Origin: Pacificimonas aurantium
Lineage (GTDB): Bacteria; Pseudomonadota; Alphaproteobacteria; Sphingomonadales; Sphingomonadaceae
Assembly (NCBI RefSeq): GCF_020092905.1
Contig: NZ_JAGSGB010000002.1
Location: 310,001 to 374,000 of the forward strand
DNA: 64,000 nucleotides
Direction: 5' to 3'
Both the position numbers and the translations under genes were made by a program. This document shows positions 1 to 13,455 of the stretch, in pieces. The notes under the pieces were generated by a model. It saw only the letters and a program-made list of their open reading frames with translations. It was not told where the DNA came from and did not search any database. Positions within the stretch are counted from its first letter, which is position 1; every line of letters starts with the position of its first letter.

Positions 1-707
1 AGGCCGGCGCGCAGCACCATGCCGCCACCGTCACCCGTACAGGTATGCGCCGAGGTGGCCGAGAAATAGGCGCGGCCATAACCGCCGGTTGCCAGCACTG
101 TGTTGTGCGAGCGGAAGCGGTGGATCTGGCCGGTCTCCATCTCCAGCGCAATGACGCCGCGGCACGTGCCGTCGTCGTCCATGATCAGGTCGAGCGCGAA
201 GAATTCGATGAAGAAGTCCGCATCGAACCGCAGCGACTGCTGATAGAGCGCGTGAAGCATGGCGTGGCCGGTCCGGTCGGCCGCCGCGCAGGTACGCTGC
301 GCCGCGGGGCCTTCGCCCATATTTTGCGTCATGCCGCCAAAGGCGCGCTGATAGATTTTGCCTTCGGGCGTCCGGCTGAACGGCACGCCGAAATGCTCGA
401 GTTCGTAGACAGCCGCCGGCGCCTCGCGGCAAAGATATTCGATGGCGTCCTGGTCGCCCAGCCAGTCCGACCCTTTTACGGTGTCGTACATATGCCAGGT
501 CCAGTGGTCGGGGCCCATATTCCCGAGGCTTGCGGCGATGCCGCCCTGCGCCGCGACGGTATGCGACCGGGTCGGAAAGACCTTCGTGATGCAGGCCGTC
601 TTCAGGCCCGTTTCGGCGATACCCATGGTCGCGCGCAGGCCCGAGCCGCCGGCGCCGACAACCACGGCGTCATAGGTGTGATCGATGATGGGATAGGCGT
701 CGCTCAT
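1..707 (-). CDS. sdhA: succinate dehydrogenase flavoprotein subunit (3'-truncated by window edge)
   Basis: About 235 N-terminal residues lie in the window; the rest of a roughly 600-residue protein is beyond the left edge. The subunit oxidises succinate to fumarate in complex II and passes electrons through the Fe-S subunit to quinone. A dinucleotide-binding glycine motif (VVGAGGSG) lies at residues 16-23. The SHTVAAQGG motif contains the histidine (about His49) that carries covalent FAD in this family. The ATG is 3 nt downstream of the sdhD stop, so the order sdhC-sdhD-sdhA is one operon. The Fe-S subunit sdhB is expected further left. The identity is firm; only the C-terminal capping region is unseen. 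Confidence 0.96.
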
Positions 708-710
708 GCG

Positions 711-1094
711 TCAGGCCCCAAAGGCAATGGTAAGTACTGAAAAGATGGAAAGCGCGGCCCCGCCAAAGGCGAATGCCGTCGTCAGGAGCAGCAGGGCGAT
801 GCGCGTGCCGCCCTGCGTATAGTCCTCGATCATGACCTGCATACCGAGGCGCAGATGATAGAAGACGCTTAGCGACAGCAGCACCATCGGCACCGCCACG
901 AAGGGGTTCCGCAGCCACTCGATCATGGTGAAATGATCAAGCGTCGGAAGCGTGAAGATAGAGGTCAGGAACCAGGCGAAGAGGAGCAGGTTGGAAACCG
1001 CCGTCAGCCGCTGCACCCACCAGTGGTGCGCGCCTTCCTTGGCGGAGCCCAGCCCGCGAACCTGTCCAAGAGCAGTGCCTCTGCGAATCGACAT
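711..1094 (-). CDS. sdhD: succinate dehydrogenase membrane anchor subunit SdhD
   Basis: This is a 127-residue membrane protein with three hydrophobic segments (about 33-50, 63-83 and 97-120), the usual size and layout of SdhD. The HLRLGMQ motif places His80 where complex II anchors have the haem b ligand, and the IEDY that follows it is typical of alphaproteobacterial SdhD. The reading frame is open further upstream, but the ATG giving MSIRRGTALG is chosen because the upstream extension overlaps sdhC and is not membrane-like. It sits between sdhC (19 nt gap) and sdhA (3 nt gap). It anchors the catalytic subunits and helps form the quinone site. Confidence 0.93.
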   Translation of the reverse strand: MSIRRGTALGQVRGLGSAKEGAHHWWVQRLTAVSNLLLFAWFLTSIFTLPTLDHFTMIEWLRNPFVAVPMVLLSLSVFYHLRLGMQVMIEDYTQGGTRIALLLLTTAFAFGGAALSIFSVLTIAFGA

Positions 1095-1113
1095 AGAACG
1101 CCGCTTTCCGTGC

Positions 1114-1503
1114 CTAGAGAAGAATGAACAGCCAGAGGGCGGCCGTCGCCAGAATGGAGAAGACCCAGGTAACGGTCGCGCTCGTCTTCGATGTGCCGAG
1201 CTCCAGCCCCGCACCGGTGTCCATGGCAAGGTGGCGCACGCCCGAGGCCGCATGCTGGAAAATCGCCCAGCTGAGGCCGACGCCGACGATCACGCCGATA
1301 GGAGACCGCGCGACGGCGATGAAATCCGCATAGGCTTCCGGTCCCAGTGCCGCCGCCACCAGCCACCAGACGAACGCAAGCCCGCCCGCAACAGCGAGTC
1401 CGTTGCCGGTGACACGGTGTGTGATGGAAGTGACCGCATGAACCCGCCAGCGCCAGATGCCGAGATGCGGGGAGAGCGGCCGGACCTGCGGACGCGTCGC
1501 CAT
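1114..1503 (-). CDS. sdhC: succinate dehydrogenase cytochrome b556 subunit SdhC
   Basis: This 129-residue protein begins with the RPLSPHLGIWRW region typical of SdhC, then SITHRVTG, where a conserved Ser/His/Arg set lines the quinone pocket. Three transmembrane helices follow. The HAASGVRHLAMD motif supplies the probable haem b ligand (His84). It is the first gene of the sdhCDA operon. About 90 nt separate it from the stop of the next gene upstream, so the operon promoter probably lies there, but I could not identify convincing -35/-10 boxes. Confidence 0.94.
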   Translation of the reverse strand: MATRPQVRPLSPHLGIWRWRVHAVTSITHRVTGNGLAVAGGLAFVWWLVAAALGPEAYADFIAVARSPIGVIVGVGLSWAIFQHAASGVRHLAMDTGAGLELGTSKTSATVTWVFSILATAALWLFILL

Positions 1504-1593
1504 ATATCTGTCCCTGTTACCTGTCTTTTGCGGCGCTTATTGAGCGCATGACGTGCATCGCGCAACCGGCAAAGCGCCACACCGCGCGAAAGC

Positions 1594-2004
1594 CTAGCCC
1601 TTGCACTGCAGAAGGACGGTGCGTTCCAGCCCCGCATAACGGTGCACAAGGTTCGCGCGATACTCCTCGTTCGCCATCATACCGAGGAAATGCTCTTTCG
1701 ACGGATAGCGAACGATCAGCATCTTGTCCCAGTCGGTGGCGGACGTCCCAGGCTCGCCGATGAAAACCTGCTGGACGGGACCGTCATAAAGAACCTCGGC
1801 CTTGCTCGTGTCGCCGACCGTCACGGTGAACGCATGCTGGTAGCGGGCATACGCCTCCGAACCGGGAATATCCGCGTCGCCGTCGAAATCCTCCGGATAG
1901 GCGGCACGGTCGCGAAACTTGAGCATGTTGACCATGACGATCGGTCCCTTCGCCGGGCCGTCGCGAAGGGCGCGAACCTGGTCGGCGGTCGGATCGATGG
2001 TCAT
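1594..2004 (-). CDS. DUF1330 family protein
   Basis: This is a 136-residue soluble protein of the dimeric ferredoxin-like alpha/beta-barrel type. The signature is GPIVMVNMLKFRDRAAYP early in the protein, then an acidic loop and a MLIVRYPSKEHFLGMM segment before a final strand. DUF1330 proteins have no agreed biochemical role; some relatives are monooxygenase-like or decarboxylase-like. It is the last gene of a three-gene minus-strand operon with an APH-type kinase and a DUF6285 protein, overlapping the latter by 4 nt. That context suggests a step in the same small-acid or acyl-CoA pathway, but this is inference. Confidence 0.85.
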   Translation of the reverse strand: MTIDPTADQVRALRDGPAKGPIVMVNMLKFRDRAAYPEDFDGDADIPGSEAYARYQHAFTVTVGDTSKAEVLYDGPVQQVFIGEPGTSATDWDKMLIVRYPSKEHFLGMMANEEYRANLVHRYAGLERTVLLQCKG

Positions 2005-2366
2005 TCGGCAAGCTCCCTCAAACGCGGCAAAGTAGAAAATTTCGGATTGTCGACCGCCAGCCGCGCGGCGACGAACCCCGCCAGCCTCTTCAGCATGTCG
2101 GGGTCGTCGGGTTCAACCTCGCCGCTACGGATGCCGGCGGCGAAGGCCACCGCAGGATCTTCATCGGCCGAGCACCCCATTCTCTCCCGGTAATAGGCAA
2201 GTTCCGCCTCCCGCGGCTTCTGGCGTGCTTCCCGCGCGATGATCGCAAGCGCGTTCTGCGCGACCTTCGCATGGAATGCCTGCCGTCCCTCCAGCTTTCC
2301 GGAGATTTCGTCGATATACCCCGCGACCGCCTCGGCGAGATCTTCGATCTGAATACCCCTGCTCAT
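2001..2366 (-). CDS. DUF6285 protein, LvaB-like partner of the adjacent kinase
   Basis: This 121-residue soluble helical protein starts at MSRGIQIEDLAEAV. The ATG overlaps the stop of the upstream kinase in a TGATG arrangement, which fixes the start and implies translational coupling. It has no catalytic motif; it looks like a small all-helical accessory protein, ending RLAVDNPKFSTLPRLRE. Proteins of this type are commonly encoded beside APH-family kinases. In levulinic-acid degradation the analogous small protein LvaB supports LvaA kinase activity. The family assignment is made from sequence features and context, not a database search. An ORF starting further upstream is rejected because it lies entirely inside the kinase. 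Confidence 0.8.
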   Translation of the reverse strand: MSRGIQIEDLAEAVAGYIDEISGKLEGRQAFHAKVAQNALAIIAREARQKPREAELAYYRERMGCSADEDPAVAFAAGIRSGEVEPDDPDMLKRLAGFVAARLAVDNPKFSTLPRLRELAE

Positions 2367-3367
2367 CAGAGCGCCCCTTTCTGAAGCATGTAGATGAGAT
2401 CGGCCTCGTTTTCGGACACCCGCCGACCGATCGCCGCCCGCTCCACCGAGACCGCCTCCCCGGCCAGGTGCTGCTCGGCCATCTGCCAGCACACGATGCC
2501 CCAGCGAAGCGATCCGTACATTTCGAAGACCAAAGCGAGATCGCGGTCGACCGCCGGCCCGCCGGCCGCCTCATAGGCGCGGTAGAACTCTTCGCGCTCG
2601 CCGAAGCCGCCCACCGGCTTCTGCCAATTACCGAAGCGCCAGGTGTTGGTGCAGAGCCACCCGATATCGTTCAACGGGTGGCCCAGGCTTGCGCCTTCCC
2701 AGTCGAGTACGGACCTCAGCCCTTCCTCACCGACGATGAAGTTTCCCGACCTGTAGTCGCCGTGAACCAGCACTTCGGGCCCATCGTCGGGCAATCGTTT
2801 CTCCAGCCTGGCGAAGGCCAGTTCGAACACGGGAACGCCGCCGCCCATGGCATCGTAGGAGTCGCGCAGCCGCAGCAGGCTCTCTCGTGCGCTCATGCTC
2901 GTCAGGCCGAGCTTGCGGAAATCCTCGACCGGCAAGGAATGTATTCGTGCGAGCGCTTCTGCCGTCTGGCCGACCATTGCCTTCCGGGCAGCGGAAAATT
3001 CCTCCTTGCGCAGATAGCGGGGCGCCAGTGTTTCCCCGGCGACGAATTCCATGACGAAGCCCTCGCCCAGGTCATCCTCCGCGGTCAGCACATAGACGAT
3101 GTGAGGTACGGGAACCCCGCCCTTCTCCGCGCGGGTCTGGACCTCGGCCTGGACAGCACGGCTCATCCGTCCCGGCATCTGCGCCTGCGACTGCTGCAGG
3201 ACCAGCTGCCAGGACTGTCCGTCCTTTTCGGCGTCGATCAGGTAGCTCATGGAATTGGCGCCGCCCGACAGGGCCTTCACCCCCTCGATGGTGACATCGG
3301 CGCCCGCGGACTGGCTCAGCCGGGCGGCAAGGCGGCCTTGGACTTGTTCGTCGGTCTGTATGCTCAT
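2366..3367 (-). CDS. APH-family phosphotransferase, LvaA/ACAD10-11 kinase-like
   Basis: This is a 333-residue kinase of the aminoglycoside-phosphotransferase fold. The catalytic loop HGDYRSGNF is at residues 202-210 with catalytic Asp204, and the metal-binding DWE is at 222-224. The N-lobe carries the SGGANSMSYLI region typical of kinases that act with acyl-CoA dehydrogenases rather than antibiotic-resistance enzymes. It leads an operon with the DUF6285 and DUF1330 genes and is divergent from the chemoreceptor gene. By analogy with LvaA and the kinase domains of human ACAD10/11, a 4-hydroxyacyl-CoA is a plausible substrate. No acyl-CoA dehydrogenase is adjacent here, so substrate and pathway are inferred. 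Confidence 0.85.
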   Translation of the reverse strand: MSIQTDEQVQGRLAARLSQSAGADVTIEGVKALSGGANSMSYLIDAEKDGQSWQLVLQQSQAQMPGRMSRAVQAEVQTRAEKGGVPVPHIVYVLTAEDDLGEGFVMEFVAGETLAPRYLRKEEFSAARKAMVGQTAEALARIHSLPVEDFRKLGLTSMSARESLLRLRDSYDAMGGGVPVFELAFARLEKRLPDDGPEVLVHGDYRSGNFIVGEEGLRSVLDWEGASLGHPLNDIGWLCTNTWRFGNWQKPVGGFGEREEFYRAYEAAGGPAVDRDLALVFEMYGSLRWGIVCWQMAEQHLAGEAVSVERAAIGRRVSENEADLIYMLQKGAL

Positions 3368-3459
3368 CGTTAGCGGGTTCTTAATCCGTGCCGCTTAAAG
3401 CCCAAGCCGACCAAAGGACTAGGACCGGGTCGAAACAAGACGGGCGAAGGGGGCTCGCA

Positions 3460-4797
3460 TTGGCAGAGAATCTTTTTGGGGAGGTTCGATCGGTTTCCGC
3501 AGACGATCGCCGCGCGGCATTCCGGATCGACGAAAAAACAGATGCAGCGCTCGATCGGATCGGAGAGATCCTGCACGGACAGGCGCAGACATTCTCCCGA
3601 TTGTTCTGGGAACGCTTCGTCAGCCTGACGGGGCTCGAAATCGACCCAGCCGCGCTCGATAGCCAGATCGAGCGGACCACGACCTACAACCAGCGAAAGC
3701 TGACCCCGCCCGTCGACGAGGCCTGGATAGAAGCGGTACTGAAAAGGGGAACCAAGCTCTATGAGATCGGCGCCCCGCAGCATGCCGTCATCGGCGCTCT
3801 GGCAGCGTCGCAAGAGGCGCATGGGGAGAAAATCCTCGACGGCTTCGCCGAAACCGGCGACGGCATGGAGATGCTGCGTGAGTATCATAAGATCGCGCTG
3901 CTTGAGATCGAACTGATGAGCTCGGCGGTTCAACAGGGCCAGCTCGCCCGCTCCCGCCGGATCCTGAACAGGCAGGCGGAAAAATTCGAGCGCGACATCG
4001 CAACCGCCGTAGAGAGCGCCTCGGCAATGAGCCGCGCCGCCAAGAGCCAGTCGGCGGGGGCCGACGAGGTCACGCGGGACCTGTTGGCGCGTGCGGCGGA
4101 AGTCGCGGCTGCGGCCGACCAGTCGGCAACAGCGATGCGCGAGGCGGCCGAGACCTCCACCGGCCTGATCAAGGCCATCGAAGAAGCGCGCCGCGAAGTC
4201 GATGGCGCGACGGAGGTCGTCGATCATGCGACGGCGCAGGCAAATGACGCAGTAGAGGTCGCGGCCATCCTCGCAAACCACACGCAGGCGGTCGAATCGA
4301 TCGTCAGCCTGATCCGGGACATCGCCGGCCAGACCAACCTGCTCGCGCTCAACGCCACTATCGAGGCGGCGCGCGCCGGCGATGCCGGGCGCGGTTTCGC
4401 GGTGGTGGCGTCGGAAGTGAAGAGCCTCGCGGGGCAGACCGCGCGGGCCACCGACGAAATCGCCAAGAAGATCGGCGATATTCAGGCATCGTCCAGCCGA
4501 ACCGTGGACGTGAACCGCGCCATCCTGGAAACGGTGGACGGCGTCCGCGGCTCGGCCCAGCGCCTGCGGGAGGCAATGGATCGCCAATCGGCGACCGTGA
4601 CGATGATTACCGGTTCGGTCGACGAAACCGCGATCAGCGCGGACAGCATGTCGGAAGCGATCGCGACTATCCGCAGCACGGCGGAGGCGATCTCGCGCGA
4701 CCTCAACAACGCAGCGTCGTCATCCAGCGAGGTCGATGAGCGCATCGCGGCGCTGCAGGAAGGCGCGCGCCGGTTCATGCAAAGCTTCGCCGCCTAG
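3460..4797 (+). CDS. soluble methyl-accepting chemotaxis protein with globin-type sensor domain
   Basis: This 445-residue cytoplasmic receptor has no transmembrane segment. Residues 1 to about 160 look like a globin-coupled-sensor (protoglobin) domain. The C-terminal half is a chemoreceptor coiled coil, with the CheA/CheW-binding hairpin tip ([18 protein letters not shown] and [10 protein letters not shown]) around residues 291-319. The TTG start is preferred because a strong GAAGGGGG ribosome site lies 6 nt upstream. A GTG at 3388 is in frame but has no such site and would leave only 20 nt to the divergent kinase start. At the position of the proximal haem histidine (expected H-x-x-I-G) the sequence reads LYEIG, with Leu100. 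Haem binding is therefore doubtful. Confidence 0.88.
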
Positions 4798-4966
4798 CGG
4801 CGCGGGAAGACGTCCGTTCGCTCAACGCATTCGAATGCAGGACCGCGTGCTATAATCACGCCCCTACCTCCCTAACCGTTCGAGGTGATCGGTTCGCCTT
4901 CCCAGTTTCGCCTTGTCGGTGCACTCGGCCGTAGCGCACGGTAGCCGGCTTGAAAGGCCGCTTCGC

Positions 4967-5824
4967 TTACAACCCGTGAGGCGGCGGACAAACTGGCAAA
5001 GGGCTTGGGGCCTGCGGAATGCCTTCGAAGGTCTTCAACCATCTCGCCTTTTGCAGCTGTGCCCTTTCATCAGGGGTAACGTCCCCAGCTCTTACTTCGG
5101 TCAACTCCCCCAGGCTCCGGGCCGTCTCGCCCACAAGCGGATAGCCCCACTCGCGCATTTGTGATGCAGAAAGGACGGTCCCGGCGAATTGGGATCTGTA
5201 GCCAAGGCTCTCGAACGCCTCGGAACCCGAGTTAATAATCTCACTACCGATGCATTCCGGAATCATCGCATCGAACGGCCGGGTCGTCACGTCTGGCGAA
5301 ATGTCATGCTCATCTAAGAATTCTCCGACAGAATGGGCTTGTCTTGCAATCCATTCGGTCCAGCTTGCTTCGTATCCTTCCGCCGCGCGACTTAGCGCTT
5401 TCGCCGAGTGATGCAGCTGAAGGACGTCTCGTTTATCTACGAACACTCGCTTCCCCGCAGCGAGAACGATCATCGCGCACGCAGACCAACAACTGTCGAC
5501 GACGACCACGTCTGCCTCGCGGTCTCTTATGATTGCTGCGACCTGTATAGACGTTTCCGTTTGTCCCCCGCCGCTTTTTATGTACAACGTATTGAAAGGT
5601 TTAGATAATTCGTCGGAACATTCTTCGATAAGACCGTACCTTATCGGACCGTCGATATATAGATTTGGAGGCTCGGAGAGGGCGTCGCCATCGTACTCGC
5701 CCGTTCCGATCGTAGTTCCGTTGTAGCGGCACGACCACTCAACATCTGGCGGCGCCCCAGCCTGTGGGGCGCCGCAACCGAACAACAGCAAGATCGCCAA
5801 TAATGCCAGGCTAAGCGATAACAA
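4967..5824 (-). CDS. lipoprotein with ClpP/crotonase-fold periplasmic domain (COG3904-like)
   Basis: This is a 285-residue predicted lipoprotein with a hydrophobic signal and lipobox LFGC (Cys17). The core resembles serine-protease-like ClpP-fold periplasmic proteins. An SGGG turn lies at 84-87, then a helix and the strand ADVVVVDSC. SCWSAC (Ser114) is a possible nucleophile elbow, and His138/139 is a possible base. The start is TTG, with GGAG a few nt upstream. The gene is visibly richer in A/T than its neighbours (for example around 5570-5700), suggesting separate ancestry. Function is unknown; proteolysis is possible but unproven. It is convergent with the chemoreceptor gene. Confidence 0.72.
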   Translation of the reverse strand: MLSLSLALLAILLLFGCGAPQAGAPPDVEWSCRYNGTTIGTGEYDGDALSEPPNLYIDGPIRYGLIEECSDELSKPFNTLYIKSGGGQTETSIQVAAIIRDREADVVVVDSCWSACAMIVLAAGKRVFVDKRDVLQLHHSAKALSRAAEGYEASWTEWIARQAHSVGEFLDEHDISPDVTTRPFDAMIPECIGSEIINSGSEAFESLGYRSQFAGTVLSASQMREWGYPLVGETARSLGELTEVRAGDVTPDERAQLQKARWLKTFEGIPQAPSPLPVCPPPHGL

Positions 5825-6167
5825 TATCCGCTCCGGTTTCCGCTACCGACACCATACCAACCCTATCGAAAGCGTTTCCAGCGCGATACCGCCATGGGCG
5901 AACGCAGGAGCAGGATCGACCCCAACGCCAGTGGCAACCGGTGATCTCCCGACCGCACCCGCGCCCTCGGTCTACTGTGCTTGAGGAGACATGAGCGGGC
6001 GCTTCGTTCGCACAAACGTCAAAGGAGGAGGACGGGTCCCTGGCTGGCGAACATGATGCGGCCGGTACCGAACGGACAGCTCATGATCGCCCGAGCGCCG
6101 CAAGCCGACATGCCGAACGCTATCCAACCGGAAAGAGAGGCTGAAAATGATCGACTTTTTAGCTGCG
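5825..6167. other. 343-bp gene-free stretch
   Basis: This lies between the TTG start of the lipoprotein gene and the 3' end of tRNA-Leu. I find no convincing ORF, RNA gene or repeat. A 22-codon frame starting at 5991 and a 30-codon minus-strand frame near 6030-6120 are not supported by coding character. The promoter of the lipoprotein gene should lie at the left end. No clear terminator follows the tRNA. Confidence 0.6.
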
Positions 6168-6252
6168 TGGTACCCCCGGCCGGAATCGAACCGGCAATCC
6201 CGTAGGAACTCGATTTTGAGTCGAGCGCGTCTACCAATTCCGCCACGGGGGC
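6168..6252 (-). tRNA. tRNA-Leu (anticodon CAA)
   Basis: An 85-nt cloverleaf on the minus strand. The acceptor stem GCCCCCG pairs with CGGGGGU, closing with a G-U pair. The anticodon stem CTCGA/TCGAG encloses the loop CTCAAAA, giving anticodon CAA. A leucine-type variable arm and T-arm GCCGG/CCGGC with a TTCGATT loop follow. The 3' CCA is encoded. It reads UUG codons. Confidence 0.96.
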
Positions 6253-6332
6253 CCGCCTTCGACGGTGCGGGGCGCTGAATAACCCGCAACAGGGCTCTTG
6301 CCAATCTTTGCGCGCCGCTCCACCTGCGCAGC

Positions 6333-7076
6333 ATGGCAGATGGCGAGCGCATTGCGAAACTGATGGCCCGGGCCGGCGCCGGCTCGCGCCGCGAAGTCGA
6401 ACGCATGATCGGCGAGGGCCGCGTCGCGCTGGATGGCAAGACATTGACCTCCCCTGCCCTAAACCTTCCCAGTCTGCGCGGCGTCACACTCGACGGAGAG
6501 CCGCTGGGAAAGGCGGAGCGGACGCGTCTCTGGCGGCTGCACAAGCCCGCTGGCACGTTGACGACCGAGCGGGACCCGAAGGGACGGCCCACTGTCTTCG
6601 ACAAGCTCCCCAAGGATATGCCGCGCGTTAGCACGGTTGGCCGCCTCGATTTCAATACCGAGGGTCTTCTTCTCCTTACCAATGACGGAGAGCTCAAACG
6701 CGCGCTGGAACTGCCGAAGAACGCAGTACAGCGTCGCTACCGGGTTCGCGTTTTTGGGGATGTGCATCAGGCGGAGCTCGAGCGGCTAGCCGAGGGTGTT
6801 ACCATCGATGGCGTGCACTACCGCTCGATCGAGGCGAATATCGATCGCAAATCGGGTCGCTATTCGTGGCTCAGCCTTGCGCTGACCGAGGGGAAGAATA
6901 GGGAGGTTCGCCGCGTTCTCGACCATCTCGGGCTGCAGGTGACCCGCCTGATCCGAACCGGCTTCGGGCCTTTCGAACTCGAAGATTTGAAGACAGGCGC
7001 GGTCGAGGCTTTGCCGCCGGCTGCGGTAGCGGAGGCACATTTGGCCATTCGCAGTTCCAAGGCCTCGAAGGCCTGA
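6333..7076 (+). CDS. rluB: 23S rRNA pseudouridine synthase RluB/RsuA family
   Basis: This 247-residue protein has an N-terminal S4 RNA-binding domain (about residues 4-55, RIAKLMARAGAGSRREVERM) and an RsuA-type catalytic domain. The active-site motif GRLDFNTEGLLLLTNDG puts the catalytic aspartate at Asp106. The later REVRRVLDHLG motif is also typical. It would isomerise a uridine in 23S rRNA helix 89; RluE- or RsuA-type specificity cannot be excluded from sequence alone. It is followed by rsmD after 19 nt, forming a two-gene rRNA-modification operon. Confidence 0.9.
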   Translation: MADGERIAKLMARAGAGSRREVERMIGEGRVALDGKTLTSPALNLPSLRGVTLDGEPLGKAERTRLWRLHKPAGTLTTERDPKGRPTVFDKLPKDMPRVSTVGRLDFNTEGLLLLTNDGELKRALELPKNAVQRRYRVRVFGDVHQAELERLAEGVTIDGVHYRSIEANIDRKSGRYSWLSLALTEGKNREVRRVLDHLGLQVTRLIRTGFGPFELEDLKTGAVEALPPAAVAEAHLAIRSSKASKA

Positions 7077-7095
7077 CGCAGGCGGCTGGGGAATA

Positions 7096-7638
7096 ATGAA
7101 GATCATTGCGGGTCAATGGCGCGGACGAACTATGACGCCGCCGCCGTCATCGACGACACGCCCCACGTCGGCGCGCGCCCGCGAAGCCCTTTTCTCCTCT
7201 TTGACCAGCAAGCTCGGAACCTTCGAAGGACTGCGCGTAGCCGACCTGTTTGCCGGTACGGGAGCGCTGGGTCTGGAGGCGCTCAGTCGCGGTGCCGCCC
7301 ATTGCCGGTTCGTGGAGAATGAGCCCCGCGCTCTTGCCGTCCTGAGAAGGAATGTAGCAAATCTCCGAGCGCAGGCGCTTTCGGAAATTCAGACGAGCGA
7401 TGTTCTGCAGGTCCGGCAGGCCACGGTCCCATTCGACCTCCTCTTTCTCGACCCGCCCTACGAAAAAGGTTTGGCAGCGCCCGCTCTGGAACGATTGGCT
7501 GAGAGAGGATGGACGTCGGCGTCGACTCTCGCGGTTGTAGAAACCGCGCGGGAGCAGACCCTGCAGCCGGTCGGTTGGAACATCGAAGGCGAGCGAATCT
7601 ACGGCGCTGCCCGCCTTAGCTTCCTTCGATGCCACTAG
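7096..7638 (+). CDS. rsmD: 16S rRNA (guanine966-N2)-methyltransferase RsmD
   Basis: This is a 180-residue class I SAM methyltransferase. It opens with MKIIAGQWRGR, characteristic of RsmD. The SAM-binding motif DLFAGTGALGLEALSRGA starts at about residue 50. The N6/N2-methyltransferase active-site motif DPPY is at residues 119-122. Length matches the family. It lies 19 nt after rluB. Its 3' end overlaps the convergent GGDEF/EAL gene by 23 nt, an unusually long tail-to-tail overlap. Confidence 0.93.
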   Translation: MKIIAGQWRGRTMTPPPSSTTRPTSARAREALFSSLTSKLGTFEGLRVADLFAGTGALGLEALSRGAAHCRFVENEPRALAVLRRNVANLRAQALSEIQTSDVLQVRQATVPFDLLFLDPPYEKGLAAPALERLAERGWTSASTLAVVETAREQTLQPVGWNIEGERIYGAARLSFLRCH

Positions 7639-9289
7639 GCTGACGGGCGCAGGGCAAGGGCTCGACGTTCAGGCTTCGCTCAACGACTTTCGGATATTCC
7701 GTTGTCCTGCGCACGATCGGTTTGGAAACAGCGAACTGCGCTGCCGCGAGCGCGTCCATTGGCTTCCCGAAGTGATAACCCTGGGCCAGGTCACAGCCTA
7801 GCAGACGCAATGCGAGTGCATTGGAGTGCGTCTCCACCCCCTCTGCGGTAATCGGAAGGTTGAGAGCTTGGCTCAGATAGGTGATCGCATCGATAAGCCG
7901 ATTGCCCTGCGCATTGCCGACACCGTTCACAAGCGAGGCATCTAGCTTCATGTAGTCGAATGCAAAGGAACGGAGGTTGGAAAGACTGGAATATCCCTTG
8001 CCGAAATCATCGAGGGCGATCCGCACCCCGGCCGCATGAAGTTGGTCGAAGGCTGCGCGTGCCGCCTCCGAATTTTCGAGAACCGCTGACTCGACGAGTT
8101 CGATGATAAGACGCTGCGGGGGAAAGTTCTGCTGCGAAAGAATATCCAGCAGCCCTGTCGAAAACCACGGATCCTGAAACTGCTGCGGCGCCACGTTCAC
8201 TGACACCGCAACATGCTCGGGCCATTCCTGTGCCGCCTCACAGCTCTTCCGGAGGATAGACTCCGTCAACAGGCCGAGAAGGCCCATTTCCTCGATATGG
8301 GGCAGGAACGATGCCGGTGCGAGCGTGCCTCGTTCCGGATGCTCCCACCTCGCCAGCGCCTCGAAGCTCGCAACTCTGTTCGACCGCAAGTCGATGACCG
8401 GCTGAAAATACGGTACGATCTGGCCTTCGGAAAGCGCGAGACGTAATGAATCCTCAAAGGCGGAACGCGCCCGCAGATTTTCATCCATGTCGGCGCAGAA
8501 GAAACGACACGCTCCCCCACCGTCAGCCTTTGCCTCGTACATGGCGATGTCCGCGGTGCGTAGGATCTCTTCAGGCTCGCAAGCGTCGACCCCGATCCTG
8601 GATACGCCGATGCTTGCACCCACTTTCACTTCATGCGCCCCGAGATGGATCGAGCGCGATAGGGCAGAAACGATCTTACGGCCCAGGCTGGAAAGCTCGT
8701 CCTCCGTCTCGCTTGAAACCACGCAAACGAATTCATCCCCACCAAGACGCGTGATGATACTCCCGGCCGGAACCGTCGCGCGCAGCCGATCGGCAATTTC
8801 GACCAGAACACGGTCACCGACACCATGTCCATGAAGGTCGTTCACAGGCTTGAACCTGTCCAGATCGATCAGGAACAGACCCATTTGCCGGGCACCCCGC
8901 GACGGCTTGCCACCGAGCGACTGGAGTGCGTCCATCAGAACCCTGCGATTGGATAGGCCGGTTAGGGTATCGTGCCTCGCCAGCTCGCGTTCGCGACGTT
9001 CCGCCGCCTCTCGCAGTTCCATTTCATGTTTGAGTTCGCGGGCGCGGCGGAACAGCAATATCAGAGAAGAAACGGCCACCAAGATGACCAGAAGGGCGAG
9101 TTCGTCGAGCTCCCAGTCTTCATGTTCGCGCGAGTAGCGGTAGAATCTGTCGAAGGCGTCGAATTCGGAGCCGACGAGGAAGATCACCACCGCTGCCAGA
9201 AAGACGACCAGCGCCTCCCACCCGTTCAGCAAACGCTGACGGAATGACCCTCTAAACCTGCGGTAAAGTGAACGACACATCTCGGCCAT
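7616..9289 (-). CDS. membrane GGDEF-EAL protein (diguanylate cyclase / c-di-GMP phosphodiesterase)
   Basis: This 557-residue protein has two transmembrane helices (about 25-41 and 64-80), a short coiled linker, a GGDEF domain with intact GGDEF at 183-187, and an EAL domain starting at 310-312. EAL catalytic features are present: N in VNVAPQQF, E in IELVES, LDDFG (426-430), K in DYMKLD, and AEGVE. Both activities may therefore be functional. The RxxD inhibitory site normally just before GGDEF is absent (sequence PAGSII). The loop between the two helices is only about 20 residues. A perfect TATAAT box ends 6 nt before the ATG, suggesting a leaderless mRNA. Confidence 0.9.
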   Translation of the reverse strand: MAEMCRSLYRRFRGSFRQRLLNGWEALVVFLAAVVIFLVGSEFDAFDRFYRYSREHEDWELDELALLVILVAVSSLILLFRRARELKHEMELREAAERRERELARHDTLTGLSNRRVLMDALQSLGGKPSRGARQMGLFLIDLDRFKPVNDLHGHGVGDRVLVEIADRLRATVPAGSIITRLGGDEFVCVVSSETEDELSSLGRKIVSALSRSIHLGAHEVKVGASIGVSRIGVDACEPEEILRTADIAMYEAKADGGGACRFFCADMDENLRARSAFEDSLRLALSEGQIVPYFQPVIDLRSNRVASFEALARWEHPERGTLAPASFLPHIEEMGLLGLLTESILRKSCEAAQEWPEHVAVSVNVAPQQFQDPWFSTGLLDILSQQNFPPQRLIIELVESAVLENSEAARAAFDQLHAAGVRIALDDFGKGYSSLSNLRSFAFDYMKLDASLVNGVGNAQGNRLIDAITYLSQALNLPITAEGVETHSNALALRLLGCDLAQGYHFGKPMDALAAAQFAVSKPIVRRTTEYPKVVERSLNVEPLPCARQPSGIEGS

Positions 9290-9295
9290 TCATTA

Positions 9296-9301
9296 ATTAT
9301 A
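9296..9301 (-). promoter_or_regulatory. candidate -10 box for the GGDEF-EAL gene
   Basis: A perfect TATAAT on the minus strand, with its last base 7 nt from the A of the ATG at 9289. Transcription would begin at or next to the start codon, so the mRNA could be leaderless; no Shine-Dalgarno sequence is visible. A good -35 box at normal spacing is not seen. Confidence 0.4.
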
Positions 9302-9381
9302 GGTGAAAGATTCCAAGACGGGGGGCTCGGCCAAATTCGTCGGTTGCGACCATTCCGGACGTTCCCTAACTGTTCCCCCGC

Positions 9382-11664
9382 ATGTCCGTCCCCGCCGAAC
9401 TCCTCGAACCGAAGGATACCGACCCGCCCTATATGACGGGGCTGAATCCACCTCAGCGCGAGGCCGTGCTCACGACCGAAGGTCCCGTGCTGATGCTGGC
9501 CGGCGCCGGTACCGGGAAAACGCGGGCGCTTACATCGCGCCTCGCACATCTGATCTACACCGAGCGAGCCTGGCCGTCGGAAATCCTCGCGGTCACCTTC
9601 ACAAACAAGGCCGCCCGCGAGATGCGTGAACGCATGCGCGCGATGATCGGCGACCGGGTGGAGGGGCTGTCGTTTCTGGGCACCTTTCACGCGATCGGTG
9701 CGCGGCTGCTGCGCCGTCATGCCGGTCTTGCAGGTCTCGAAAGCAACTTCACCATTCTCGATACGGACGACCAGTTGCGTTTGATGAAACAGATCATCAC
9801 CGGGGCCAATCTGGACGAGAAACGCTGGCCGGCCAAACAGCTCGGCGGCCTCATCGACCGTTGGAAGAACCGGGGCTGGACGCCGAAGGACGTACCTGCT
9901 GACGAAAGCTATGCCTTTGCGGACGGCAAGGGTGCCGATCTTTACCGCGCCTATCAGGCGCGGCTGAAAGAGCTGAACGCAGCTGACTTCGGTGACCTGC
10001 TTCTGGAACCGCTGAACATCTTCCGTACCAATATGGACGTTCTGAAGCAGTATCAGCAGCGGTTCCGCTACGTGCTGGTCGACGAATACCAGGACACGAA
10101 CACCGTCCAGTATCTGTGGCTGCGCCTGATCGCGCAGGGTCACGGCAACATCTGCGTTGTCGGCGACGACGACCAGTCAATCTATTCCTGGCGCGGCGCG
10201 GAGGTCGCGAACATCCTGCGCTTCGAAGAAGATTTTCCGGGGGCGGCGGTGATCCGCCTGGAACAGAATTACCGCTCCACCGGCAACATTCTCGGCGCCG
10301 CCGGCGGCCTCATCGAGAAGAATTCCGGACGCCTCGGAAAGACGCTCTGGACCGAGGGCGACGCGGGGGACCCCGTTCACGTCGTCGGCGTATGGGACGG
10401 TCCCGAAGAGGCGCGGCGCGTGGGCGACGATATCGAAAGCTTGCGGCACCGCGGCGCGAGTCTCGACGATGTCGCGATCCTCGTGCGCGCCCAGTTCCAG
10501 ACGCGCGAATTCGAGGACCGGTTCATCTATATCGGCCTTCCCTACCGGATCGTCGGCGGCTTCCGCTTCTACGAACGGGCGGAAATTCGCGACGCGCTGG
10601 CCTTCTTTCGTGTGCTGGTCCAGCCAGCCGACGACCTCGCCTTCGAGCGCATCGTCAACGTGCCGAAGCGCGGCATGGGAGAAAAGAGCGTCCAGAAGGT
10701 CCGTGCCCTCGCCCGGCAGGAGCAGGTCCCTCTGTCCGCAGCAGCCGCACAGATCGTCCAGACAGCGGACCTCCCCGGTGCCGCGCGTAAGGGTTTGGCC
10801 GACCTCGTCGAGAATTTCCGGCGGTGGCGCGAGCAGCTCGAAGATACGCCGCATCCCGAACTCGCGCGCATCATTCTGGAGGAATCCGGCTATATTCCGA
10901 TGTGGCAGCAGGACCAGTCGGCCGAAGCACAGGGCCGTATCGAGAATCTGAACGAGCTGACGAGGGCGATGGAAGAGTTCGGCTCCCTCGAAAGCTTTCT
11001 GGAACATGTCTCGCTGGTGATGGAGAACGACGCCGCGCGCGAGGAGCCGAAGGTCACGATCATGACGCTTCACGCGGCAAAGGGCCTCGAATTCGACCAT
11101 GTCTTCCTCGCTGGCTGGGAGGAAGGCGTGTTCCCCTCCCAGCGCTCCCTCGACGAAGGCGGGACGAAGAGCCTCGAGGAAGAGCGCCGCCTTGCCTATG
11201 TCGGCATCACTCGGGCCAAGAAGCGCGCGCAGATCACCCATGCCGCGAACCGGCGCATCTATGGCCAATGGACCTCGTCGATTCCGTCCCGCTTCATCGG
11301 CGAACTACCTCACGACCATGTCGAGCAGGAAACCACCATGTCCGGGGGTGCCTCCCTCTGGCGCGCGGCGCTCGACGATGCCGATCCGTTCGCGAAGGTC
11401 GGCCGCGGTTCGGGTCGCGGTCCCGGCTGGCAGCGGGCCGCCTCCTTGGGACGCGCCCCGCGTGGCACCCACCAGATCGAAGCGAAACCGGTCAGCGTTA
11501 CCGTGGGCAAGCGCGCGCGCACCGACCTCTCCGTCGGTCAGCGCGTCTTTCATCAGAAATTCGGCAACGGGACGGTCACGGCCATCGAAGGAAACAAGTT
11601 GGAAGTGGACTTCGACAAGGCCGGCTCGAAGCGAGTTCTCGATAGCTTCGTCGAACGGACCTGA
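9382..11664 (+). CDS. UvrD/PcrA-type superfamily 1 ATP-dependent DNA helicase
   Basis: This 760-residue SF1A helicase has Q-motif LNPPQREAV, Walker A GAGTGKT at 41-47, TFTNKAAREM (motif Ia), VDEYQDTN (Walker B, about 233-240), GDDDQSIYSWRGA (motif III), EQNYRS (motif IV), TLHAAKGLEFDHVF (motif V) and VGITRAKK (motif VI). The C-terminus ends in a small Tudor-like domain (GQRVFHQKFGNGTVTAIEG) typical of PcrA/UvrD. It would unwind DNA in nucleotide-excision and mismatch repair and displace protein-bound strands. It stands alone, divergent from the GGDEF/EAL gene. Confidence 0.94.
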   Translation: MSVPAELLEPKDTDPPYMTGLNPPQREAVLTTEGPVLMLAGAGTGKTRALTSRLAHLIYTERAWPSEILAVTFTNKAAREMRERMRAMIGDRVEGLSFLGTFHAIGARLLRRHAGLAGLESNFTILDTDDQLRLMKQIITGANLDEKRWPAKQLGGLIDRWKNRGWTPKDVPADESYAFADGKGADLYRAYQARLKELNAADFGDLLLEPLNIFRTNMDVLKQYQQRFRYVLVDEYQDTNTVQYLWLRLIAQGHGNICVVGDDDQSIYSWRGAEVANILRFEEDFPGAAVIRLEQNYRSTGNILGAAGGLIEKNSGRLGKTLWTEGDAGDPVHVVGVWDGPEEARRVGDDIESLRHRGASLDDVAILVRAQFQTREFEDRFIYIGLPYRIVGGFRFYERAEIRDALAFFRVLVQPADDLAFERIVNVPKRGMGEKSVQKVRALARQEQVPLSAAAAQIVQTADLPGAARKGLADLVENFRRWREQLEDTPHPELARIILEESGYIPMWQQDQSAEAQGRIENLNELTRAMEEFGSLESFLEHVSLVMENDAAREEPKVTIMTLHAAKGLEFDHVFLAGWEEGVFPSQRSLDEGGTKSLEEERRLAYVGITRAKKRAQITHAANRRIYGQWTSSIPSRFIGELPHDHVEQETTMSGGASLWRAALDDADPFAKVGRGSGRGPGWQRAASLGRAPRGTHQIEAKPVSVTVGKRARTDLSVGQRVFHQKFGNGTVTAIEGNKLEVDFDKAGSKRVLDSFVERT

Positions 11665-11676
11665 TCGGCGAAAAAA

Positions 11677-11717
11677 CTAATCTAGTTAAGCGAATTAGCT
11701 TGTAGAAACTCTCTAAT
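11677..11717. promoter_or_regulatory. three CTAAT/ATTAG half-sites upstream of the first Crp/Fnr gene
   Basis: CTAAT at 11677-11681, ATTAG at 11694-11698 and CTAAT at 11713-11717 form two overlapping inverted arrangements in the 86-nt gap before the regulator start. This is an AT-rich patch in GC-rich surroundings and may hold the promoter and an operator. There is no experimental support. Confidence 0.3.
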
Positions 11718-11750
11718 TCCCCGGGCCACCAAGAGCCGAAAAGGGGACCG

Positions 11751-12521
11751 ATGTCGAGGGCATTGGCGCGTAAGCTGTCGAACTTCCTGGAACTGACGGA
11801 CCAGGACAAAACCTATCTCGACAGGATCACATTCGCTCGTGAAACGGTCCCCGCCGACCGCGATATCGTGGGTTTCGGAGAAGTCCCGGCGACGATGTTC
11901 GTCATCGAACGGGGCATGGCAATCCGCTACCGTGTGCTGCGCGGCGGCGAACGCCAGATCCTGTCATTCATGCTTCCGGGCGACCTGTGCGATCTGAACG
12001 TGTTCCTTCTCAAGAAGATGGACCACAATGTCGCCTCTCTGGAGGAGCTGGAGATGTCCCGCATCCGGCGGGACGATGTCCTCAAAACGTATTTCAAGCG
12101 ACCGCGTATCGCCGCGGCTCTCTGGTGGAGCGCGCTCCAGGCCGAAGCAATCTCGCGCGAGCATATCGTTGCGCTAGGCAGGCGACGGGCCCGCAGCCGG
12201 CTCGCCTATCTGTTCTTCGACATCTACTGGCGCCTGAAGGCCGTGGGGCTTGCGGAGGACAATGTCCTCAATCTCCCGCTCACTCAGGCGGAGATCGGCG
12301 ATGCCCTCGGTCTTACTCCGGTTCACATCAACCGTGTTCTGAAAGAACTTGTCGAGGAAGGCCTTATCGACAAGCAGAGGGGCCAAGTGCAGCTTCTGAA
12401 TACCGAAGCGCTGCAGAAAGTCGCCGACATCGACGACCATTACCTGCATCTCGACGCCCCTCCGCGCGAGATCGCAAGCTACTTCCACGATCTGGAACGA
12501 CTGACCGACGTCTCGAATTAA
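11751..12521 (+). CDS. Crp/Fnr family transcriptional regulator (first of tandem pair)
   Basis: This 256-residue protein has an N-terminal cyclic-nucleotide-binding-fold domain (residues about 15-125, with IERGMAIRYRVL and MLPGDLCDLNVFLL). A long dimerisation helix follows, then a winged HTH (LTQAEIGDALGLTPVHINRV, from about 177). There is no N-terminal cysteine cluster, so it is not an Fe-S Fnr. The cAMP-binding arginine signature of true CRP is not obvious either; the ligand is unknown. It is closely similar to the next gene along its whole length, so the two are paralogues. The start ATG has GGGGA upstream. Confidence 0.9.
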   Translation: MSRALARKLSNFLELTDQDKTYLDRITFARETVPADRDIVGFGEVPATMFVIERGMAIRYRVLRGGERQILSFMLPGDLCDLNVFLLKKMDHNVASLEELEMSRIRRDDVLKTYFKRPRIAAALWWSALQAEAISREHIVALGRRRARSRLAYLFFDIYWRLKAVGLAEDNVLNLPLTQAEIGDALGLTPVHINRVLKELVEEGLIDKQRGQVQLLNTEALQKVADIDDHYLHLDAPPREIASYFHDLERLTDVSN

Positions 12522-12545
12522 CAAGAGCAATAACATTTATCAGGC

Positions 12546-12590
12546 CAGATCGATCTGATAGCTTCGATCGAGAAGAAACCTCGTTCTTCT
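12546..12590. promoter_or_regulatory. palindromes between the two Crp/Fnr genes
   Basis: Two dyads lie in the 136-nt gap: a perfect 12-bp palindrome CAGATCGATCTG (12546-12557), and AGAAGAA/TTCTTCT arms separated by 6 nt (12571-12590). No T-run follows, so a terminator is unlikely. They are candidate operators for one or both regulators. Confidence 0.35.
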
Positions 12591-12657
12591 GAATCCTTTG
12601 CCCGTTGTTGGTGGCCGATCTGTGGAAGCGGCGAACCATTGCTGAAAGTCCAATGCC

Positions 12658-13455
12658 ATGCCAAGTCCGCTTGTCAGGAAGCTCGCCCTATTCTCGCCTC
12701 TTCGCGCGGACGACCGGGATCGGATCATGTCCGCAACGACGCATCTGGAAACCTTCCAGGCGGAAACGGATATCGTCTCGCAGGGCCAGGTTCCGCGCTC
12801 CATGTTCGTTGTCGAAGACGGAATGGCCGCCCGCTACCGGGTCCTGAAAGACGGGCGACGCCAGATCCTGACCTTCCTCATTCCCGGCGACCTCTGCGAT
12901 CTTCACGTCTTCCTTCTGAAGGAAATGGACCATGGCATCGCCGCGGTAACCAATACCCGGGTCCGGGCGCTGACGCGGGACAGGGCGATGGCGATGAATT
13001 TCCAGCATCCCCGCATCGCGGCTGCCTTCTGGTGGAGCACGCTTCAGGAAGAAGCGATCCTGCGCGAGCGGATCGTCGCTCTCGGCCGACGTTCGGCACG
13101 AGAGCGGATCGCTTACCTGTTCTGCGAACTCTACTGGCGCTTCGAGGCCGTCGACCTCGTCACCGATCATCATTTTTCGCTGCCGCTCACTCAGTCCGAA
13201 CTTGCCGATGCGCTGGGCCTCACGCCGGTCCACGTGAATCGAACCTTACGAAAACTGGTGGCTGAAGGCCTGATCGAAAAACGGCGAAATTCGGTAACTC
13301 TTCTCGACATCTCAGCCCTCAAGGAAGTTGCCGACATCGACCGGGACTATCTTCACTTCGGTGCGCCGCCAGTCGAGGTGGAAACCTATTTCGACCGCCT
13401 CGAAGGTAACTCCGCGGGCGAGGCCGCCGCGGGAGCGGGCAGTCCGCCCGCCTAG
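12658..13455 (+). CDS. Crp/Fnr family transcriptional regulator (second of tandem pair)
   Basis: This 265-residue protein is a paralogue of the preceding gene. It shares MFVVEDGMAARYRVL, the IPGDLCDLHVFLLKEMDH segment, PRIAAAFWWS and a near-identical recognition helix (LGLTPVHVNRTL versus LGLTPVHINRVL). The two proteins should therefore recognise similar DNA. No Fe-S cysteine motif is present. It carries a short Ala/Gly-rich C-terminal tail missing from its partner. An own promoter is likely in the 136-nt gap upstream. Stress or metabolic signalling is possible but the signal is unknown. Confidence 0.9.
   Translation: MPSPLVRKLALFSPLRADDRDRIMSATTHLETFQAETDIVSQGQVPRSMFVVEDGMAARYRVLKDGRRQILTFLIPGDLCDLHVFLLKEMDHGIAAVTNTRVRALTRDRAMAMNFQHPRIAAAFWWSTLQEEAILRERIVALGRRSARERIAYLFCELYWRFEAVDLVTDHHFSLPLTQSELADALGLTPVHVNRTLRKLVAEGLIEKRRNSVTLLDISALKEVADIDRDYLHFGAPPVEVETYFDRLEGNSAGEAAAGAGSPPA

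What the first reader, a model, noticed from the sequence alone, without database searches (positions are those of the whole stretch)
1594..3367. LvaAB-like acyl-CoA kinase pair with a DUF1330 gene in place of the expected dehydrogenase
The first two genes overlap (TGATG) and encode an APH-type kinase and a small helical DUF6285 protein. In levulinic-acid degradation LvaA and LvaB form such a pair, phosphorylating 4-hydroxyacyl-CoA, which a dehydrogenase-family enzyme then dephosphorylates to an enoyl-CoA. Here the third gene is DUF1330, a family without a settled reaction. This suggests a variant pathway for a hydroxy- or oxo-acid.
Basis: partly seen in the sequence, partly recalled or inferred. 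Interest (0 to 1): 0.58.

Follow-up and report, generated by a model that had tools for sequence, protein, structure and literature searches.

The report
LvaAB-like kinase pair beside SDH genes
This bacterium carries a two-part enzyme resembling a known kinase that tags hydroxy-acids so they can be broken down; the neighbouring small gene does not replace the usual partner enzyme, which lies elsewhere in the genome and seems to be of a different type from the one in the studied pathway.

Summary
The three genes are real: an APH kinase (2366-3367), DUF6285 (2001-2366) and a DUF1330-like protein (1594-2004, below Pfam's cut-off), all on the minus strand with overlapping ends, followed by sdhCDA. 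The kinase belongs with lva-operon kinases, not with aminoglycoside or ACAD10/11-type kinases; kinase and DUF6285 share one frame in many relatives. So 'LvaAB-like pair' holds by sequence; activity is untested.

'DUF1330 in place of the dehydrogenase' does not hold. Its orthologues track sdhC: opposite-strand genes split it from the pair in many relatives, one congener has pair plus sdh without it, and orthologues occur with no pair in sight. The dehydrogenase is encoded elsewhere: all 11 genomes with this SDH-linked kinase clade carry one of the subfamily that sits beside the pair in 38 of 53 sphingomonad loci. Among 40 chosen genomes it is in 19 of 20 with a pair kinase and 0 of 20 without.

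That dehydrogenase is not LvaC: 60 of 60 sequences lack the ACAD11 phosphate-contact residues (R626, H634, R637) and have Glu for Asp753; 7 of 7 beside lva-type pairs keep all four. DUF6285 kinases thus serve two dehydrogenase classes; the chemistry of the second is unknown.

The parts
2366..3367 (-). APH-fold kinase, LvaA-like, 333 aa; HGDYRSGN and DWE motifs intact
   Evidence: Pfam PF01636; motif residues kept in 21 of 21 SDH-labelled kinases of the tree set; tree
2001..2366 (-). DUF6285 protein, LvaB-like, 121 aa; start overlaps kinase stop (TGATG)
   Evidence: Pfam PF19802, 69.8 bits; same family in an lva-type operon L242
1594..2004 (-). DUF1330-like dimeric alpha+beta barrel protein, 136 aa; start overlaps DUF6285 stop (ATGA); probably an SDH-proximal neighbour, not the missing dehydrogenase
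   Evidence: PF07045 20.0 bits, below cut-off 23; AF2 pLDDT 91.9, best fold RPA0582 3hhl/3dca
1114..1503 (-). sdhC, succinate dehydrogenase membrane subunit; 90 bases after the DUF1330 stop
   Evidence: PF01127 91.4 bits
711..1094 (-). sdhD (start inferred)
   Evidence: PF01127 60.1 bits
3..707 (-). sdhA, 5' part, cut by the window edge
   Evidence: ORF; homologues adjacent in relatives; identity as SdhA from sequence and context, not scanned by Pfam

Best explanation
The kinase and DUF6285 protein form one LvaA/LvaB-type two-part kinase that phosphorylates a hydroxyl group of a small acyl-CoA-like substrate with ATP. In this lineage (Sphingosinicellaceae and relatives) the pair has become unlinked from its companion acyl-CoA dehydrogenase and sits upstream of sdhCDA; the companion is encoded in trans (here most likely the solitary copy at G000:C1:999602-1000858, with a second copy in the other kinase-pair cluster at C1:892425-893690). 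The companion belongs to a 'type-B' dehydrogenase subfamily with a normal Glu base and none of the ACAD11/LvaC phosphate contacts, so the step after phosphorylation is probably not the LvaC reaction as described. DUF1330 is an SDH-proximal passenger, not part of the core. Shown: gene content, family membership, tree grouping, co-occurrence, residue differences. Inferred: the pair works as a complex, ATP-dependent phosphorylation, partnership in trans. Unknown: substrate and product.
For: Families and overlaps. Kinase and DUF6285 share one open frame of about 450-500 aa in many Sphingomonadales; AF2 model of a natural fusion from Sphingorhabdus gives pLDDT 85.6, pTM 0.86. Catalytic motif residues kept in 21 of 21 SDH-labelled kinases. 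SDH-linked kinases form one clade of 22 (SH-aLRT 100) inside the DUF6285-kinase family with the lva-type kinases; ACAD10/11-type kinases lie outside (100) (quick tree). 38 of 53 sphingomonad pair loci have a type-B dehydrogenase within 9 kb; 10 have sdhC and none. All 11 genomes with the SDH-clade kinase carry type-B elsewhere, 65-74% identical to the query. Pair kinase in 20 of 40 genomes; type-B in 19 of those 20 and 0 of the other 20. Type-B 60 of 60 F/Q/(S,G,A)/E against LvaC-type 7 of 7 R/H/R/D. Literature passages: LvaB is 12 kDa, pulls down with LvaA, both needed for growth on levulinate (PMC6692424); roles of R626, H634, R637, D753 in ACAD11 (PMC12440821).
Against: The 40 genomes were chosen by me and are related, so the co-occurrence counts are not independent. 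One pair genome, G029, lacks type-B. The type-B copies of SDH-linked genomes are not one clade (4 changes), so kinase and dehydrogenase trees do not match cleanly. The solitary dehydrogenases have no shared catabolic neighbours among those looked at. G000 also has two ACAD10/11-motif dehydrogenases (L191, L192), so an LvaC-like step in trans is not excluded. No activity data.
Confidence: 0.6

Rival explanations
1. The pair makes 4-phosphoacyl-CoA exactly as LvaAB does, and one of the genome's ACAD10/11-type dehydrogenases (C1:894657 or C5:619579) finishes the reaction in trans. The type-B dehydrogenase then has another job.
For: Two own-genome dehydrogenases carry the DGPDEVH motif; the one in L003 matches ACAD11 at 436 bits and keeps R/H/R/D.
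Against: That dehydrogenase sits with its own ACAD10/11-type kinase (L003:11088-12161), and the co-occurrence with the pair seen here is with type-B. I did not test ACAD10/11-type dehydrogenases for co-occurrence.
Confidence: 0.2
2. DUF1330 is a true pathway enzyme acting on the pair's product or substrate (for example a cofactor-free isomerase or lactone-handling enzyme), so the three genes are one variant pathway.
For: Overlapping start here; contiguous in 7 further loci; a more distant DUF1330 (about 40%) also lies beside pair plus type-B dehydrogenase in Sphingorhabdus and a 34% one near the pair in L181; fold neighbours after RPA0582 include 4-methylmuconolactone methylisomerase.
Against: Pair and DUF1330 are split by a P450 and a hydrolase on the opposite strand in many relatives while DUF1330 stays 87-133 bases from sdhC (match to match); G002 has pair and sdh without it; orthologues at 59-66% occur without pair or sdh in view in Burkholderiales and Sphingobium, two of those genomes having no DUF6285 match; only 11 of 53 pair loci have it within 6 kb.
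Confidence: 0.15
3. The pair is functionally tied to succinate dehydrogenase, for example co-expressed to remove an acyl-CoA that would otherwise inhibit or stall the TCA cycle.
For: sdhC within 6 kb and on the same strand in 10 of 11 fetched SDH-clade loci; sdhC 87-346 bases after DUF1330 in those that have it (match to match).
Against: All are one clade of related bacteria, so shared gene order may be inherited; in G006 the pair lies 15 kb away; no such link in type-B loci.
Confidence: 0.1
4. The kinase is a drug-resistance or housekeeping small-molecule kinase unrelated to acyl-CoA.
For: APH fold; the fold search also lists hygromycin, macrolide and aminoglycoside kinases; the best fold hit is 25-hydroxysteroid kinase, whose substrate is not a CoA ester.
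Against: Profile search ranks ACAD-type kinases (3dxp, 3ats, 8v3v) above all antibiotic kinases whose names show a drug; NCBIfam cut-offs not reached; constant DUF6285 partner and dehydrogenase neighbours.
Confidence: 0.08

Closest known systems
LvaA/LvaB of the Pseudomonas putida lva operon
   Same: APH kinase plus small DUF6285 protein as adjacent genes; an lva-type operon (L242) carries the same two families in the same order
   Different: No adjacent LvaC, LvaD or LvaE; window kinase is nearer to kinases of type-B loci than to lva-type kinases; sits by sdhCDA
ACAD10/ACAD11 (kinase fused to dehydrogenase)
   Same: Same kinase superfamily; sequence and profile match to the ACAD11 kinase domain
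   Different: Separate kinase clade; not fused; has DUF6285 partner; the type-B dehydrogenase lacks the ACAD11 active-site residues
25-hydroxysteroid kinase of Sterolibacterium denitrificans (9ft5, 9fsg)
   Same: Best fold match of a relative's kinase-DUF6285 fusion, E 5.8e-13, 22% identity; phosphorylates a hydroxyl before phosphate elimination (PMC8449060, abstract start and passages; PMC11061730, passages)
   Different: Substrate is a steroid tertiary alcohol; no DUF6285 partner was mentioned in the passages I read
RPA0582 (PDB 3hhl, 3dca), structural-genomics protein of unknown function
   Same: Closest solved relative of the DUF1330-like protein by sequence and fold
   Different: Only 31-32% identical; no function assigned

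Membership tests
LvaA/LvaB 4-hydroxyacyl-CoA kinase | APH-fold kinase with intact catalytic motifs | tested here: met
   PF01636 111.7 bits; HGDYRSGN and DWE present; H, D, R, N and DWE kept in 21 of 21 SDH-labelled kinases
LvaA/LvaB 4-hydroxyacyl-CoA kinase | Directly adjacent DUF6285 (LvaB-type) partner | tested here: met
   PF19802 69.8 bits, TGATG overlap; same in lva-type operon L242. That P. putida LvaB itself is DUF6285 is recalled, not looked up
LvaA/LvaB 4-hydroxyacyl-CoA kinase | Kinase groups with lva-operon kinases apart from ACAD10/11-type kinases | tested here: met
   91 DUF6285-type kinases against 5 ACAD10/11-type, support 100 (quick tree; the careful search did not finish)
LvaA/LvaB 4-hydroxyacyl-CoA kinase | Linked LvaC-type dehydrogenase (R/H/R plus Asp base) | tested here: not met
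   None next door; associated dehydrogenase class is F/Q/(S,G,A)/E in 60 of 60; LvaC-like ones exist elsewhere in the genome
LvaA/LvaB 4-hydroxyacyl-CoA kinase | Linked SDR (LvaD) and AMP ligase (LvaE) | tested here: not met
   Neighbours are sdhCDA, an MCP and a 285-aa protein without a Pfam match
LvaA/LvaB 4-hydroxyacyl-CoA kinase | ATP-dependent phosphorylation of 4-hydroxyacyl-CoA | not testable with these tools
   Needs an enzyme assay
DUF1330 (PF07045) | Score above the curated cut-off | tested here: not met
   20.0 against 23 bits
DUF1330 (PF07045) | Dimeric alpha+beta barrel fold of RPA0582 and relatives | tested here: met
   AF2 pLDDT 91.9; 3hhl TM 0.85, 3dca TM 0.84; only the monomer was modelled
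Aminoglycoside phosphotransferase (resistance) | NCBIfam model cut-off reached | tested here: not met
   Best 35 bits against 205

The most novel reading that the evidence does not exclude
DUF6285-coupled kinases serve two different chemistries. In one (lva) the phosphorylated product goes to an LvaC/ACAD10/11-type enzyme; in the other, common in Alphaproteobacteria, it goes to a dehydrogenase subfamily with a Glu base and no phosphate-binding residues, so the phosphate marks the substrate for a different reaction (for example ordinary alpha,beta-desaturation of a phosphorylated acyl-CoA, or elimination from another position). The Sphingosinicellaceae have split this module into a pair beside sdh and a solitary dehydrogenase.
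Probability: 0.4. Interest if true: 0.62.

Novelty: new variant of a known kind. Interest (0 to 1): 0.4.

Why it matters
Annotation would carry the levulinate/4-hydroxyacid pathway over to any APH-DUF6285 pair. The clean residue split (7 of 7 against 60 of 60) says that this transfer is unsafe for most sphingomonad pairs examined here, and it names a specific enzyme pair to assay. It would also show that a phosphorylation-dependent acyl-CoA step can be kept as a dispersed, two-locus module.

Tried and rejected
DUF1330 as replacement dehydrogenase: rejected. Cytochrome P450 as module member, since it lies between pair and DUF1330 in Sandarakinorhabdus: rejected, it matches in 28 of 40 genomes including many without the pair. 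First idea that the dehydrogenase beside most pairs was LvaC: rejected when ACAD11 was missing from its PDB hits at E 1e-30 or better and the residues differed. Congruent kinase and dehydrogenase trees: not found. Shared neighbours of the solitary dehydrogenase: no catabolic set among the 10 genes scanned from 5 loci. Plasmid search for DUF6285: no match. Promoter scan 1400-3480: none found, 0.2 expected, which says little for this kind of genome. NCBIfam scan of type-B and LvaC-type dehydrogenases: no model over its cut-off. Literature: 'DUF6285' in 0 papers, 'DUF1330' in 7, one mention each by the listing; two searches gave nothing on APH-DUF6285 pairs with this dehydrogenase class, judged from the listings. 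These cover only open-licence PMC papers; Rand et al. 2017 is not held, so I know it only through citing papers.

PF19802 misses divergent fused DUF6285: G005 and G092, counted as lacking it, have a fused kinase beside type-B; I therefore relabelled all 40 genomes by an independent kinase search.

Full report
What is there. The window (G000:C5:310001-374000) has, on the minus strand, an APH kinase 3367-2366, a DUF6285 protein 2366-2001 and a DUF1330-like protein 2004-1594 with overlapping ends, then after 90 bases sdhC, sdhD and sdhA. The DUF1330 match is below Pfam's cut-off (20.0 against 23 bits), but sequence (RPA0582, E 2.6e-14) and predicted fold (pLDDT 91.9; 3hhl and 3dca first) place it with the dimeric alpha+beta barrels. 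The genome is a sphingomonad: the nearest named DUF1330 orthologue, 81% identical, is in Pacificimonas pallii.

The kinase pair. Among solved structures the kinase matches ACAD-associated kinases best (3dxp, ACAD11, Rv3168), with 25-hydroxysteroid kinase as best fold match of a relative's fusion. In a tree of 96 kinases (quick method; the careful search did not finish) all 91 DUF6285-type kinases separate from 5 ACAD10/11-type kinases with support 100, and the SDH-linked kinases form one clade of 22, support 100. In many Sphingomonadales kinase and DUF6285 lie in one open frame of roughly 450-500 aa, and the AF2 model of such a fusion is confident (pLDDT 85.6, pTM 0.86). LvaB is reported to pull down with LvaA (PMC6692424, passages). 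The pair is therefore best read as one enzyme.

DUF1330 follows sdh, not the pair. Of 39 loci with a DUF1330 orthologue at 55% or more (L030-L068), 22 have sdhC nearby and 18 have the pair; all 18 with the pair also have sdhC, and of the 4 with sdhC but no pair 3 lie within about 3 kb of a contig end and one (L050, the G006 genome) has its pair 15 kb away. In 7 of the 18 the three genes are contiguous; in the other 11 the pair lies about 2.3-3.8 kb upstream, and where I looked a P450 and a hydrolase on the opposite strand lie between, yet DUF1330 stays 87-133 bases from sdhC (match to match). G002, a congener, has pair and sdh but no DUF1330. Orthologues of 59-66% occur in Burkholderiales and Sphingobium without pair or sdh in view, and two of those genomes (Hydrogenophaga, Rivibacter) have no DUF6285 match at all. 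In a census of 246 Sphingomonadales genomes, 73 have DUF6285 and 71 a DUF1330 relative at E 1e-12; by position they lie within 5 kb of each other in 9 genomes, read by eye from the two tables. Against this: a 40%-identical DUF1330 also sits beside the pair in Sphingorhabdus, in a cluster with AMP ligase, TetR regulator, nitronate-monooxygenase-like protein, fused kinase-DUF6285, dehydrogenase, MDMPI_N protein and amidohydrolase, and a 34% one near the pair in L181. A looser functional link of DUF1330s with such pathways is not excluded.

The dehydrogenase is in trans. Of 53 sphingomonad pair loci fetched (2 own, 11 from relatives, 40 from the order census; the census held more places than I fetched), 38 have a dehydrogenase at least 55% identical to the Sphingorhabdus one within 9 kb, 10 have sdhC within 6 kb and no such dehydrogenase, 5 have neither. 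I then searched 40 genomes: 11 with the SDH-clade pair, 7 others with DUF6285, 20 without a PF19802 match, and two odd ones (G036, G147). The dehydrogenase is in 19. An independent kinase search finds the pair kinase in 20 of the 40; the dehydrogenase is in 19 of these 20 (not G029) and in 0 of the other 20. All 11 SDH-clade genomes have it, always away from the pair; 10 have one copy, G000 two (C1:892425 in a second kinase-pair cluster; C1:999602 solitary). G001, a congener without the pair, lacks it. Fisher's exact p is 3e-10 for 19/20 against 0/20, but the genomes are related and were chosen by me, so this is only a guide.

It is not LvaC. At the ACAD11 positions R626, H634, R637 and D753 (numbers and roles from PMC12440821 passages; positions located on the alignment), 60 of 60 type-B sequences have F, Q, S/G/A and E; 7 of 7 dehydrogenases beside lva-type pairs (L240, L241, L242, L248, L249, L257, L258) have R, H, R, D. 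The window's genome has two dehydrogenases with the ACAD10/11 motif as well, one in a cluster with its own ACAD10/11-type kinase (L003). So the genome probably holds a classical 4-hydroxyacyl-CoA module in addition to the pair under study. Of 20 phylum-wide pair loci (L240-L259), 4 have type-B at 63-70% (L243, L246, L250, L251), 7 the LvaC type, 9 neither.

Results against my reading. The type-B copies of SDH-linked genomes do not form one clade. Their neighbours are unrelated housekeeping or other genes. G029 has a pair and no type-B. In G004 and G229 the pair is also unlinked from type-B, so unlinking happened more than once. I did not test co-occurrence of the ACAD10/11-type dehydrogenase with the pair, so the rival that it finishes the reaction stays open.

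Verdict. What is worth following is the two-class split of dehydrogenases that go with DUF6285 kinases.

Noticed in passing
window 3388-4797 +: Divergent methyl-accepting chemotaxis protein with a sub-threshold protoglobin match (21.3 against 25 bits), also divergent from the kinase in L026 and L019: possible globin-type sensor.
   Followed up: no
L003 (G000:C1:892000-910000), 423-12970: Second cluster in the same genome: type-B dehydrogenase, ACAD11-type dehydrogenase, AMP ligases, cyclase-family protein, APH-DUF6285 pair, ACAD11-type kinase, enoyl-CoA hydratase.
   Followed up: partly
L078 5252-17535: Sphingorhabdus cluster: metallo-beta-lactamase-fold protein, AMP ligase, TetR, DUF1330, nitronate-monooxygenase-like protein, fused APH-DUF6285, type-B dehydrogenase, MDMPI_N, amidohydrolase, DUF2855, conserved in several relatives.
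   Followed up: partly
L176 11151-12179, L174 4443-5471: A DUF2855 gene recurs near type-B dehydrogenases both in Sphingorhabdus (L078) and near the solitary copies in L174, L176, L179.
   Followed up: no
L165 (G005:C2:8023-9291): Type-B dehydrogenase match reported with one internal TAA by the genome search, though the local ORF call shows an open 428-aa frame beside a fused kinase; the difference was not resolved.
   Followed up: no
window 4967-5824 -: 285-aa predicted protein with a lipoprotein-like start and no Pfam family at E 0.001.
   Followed up: no
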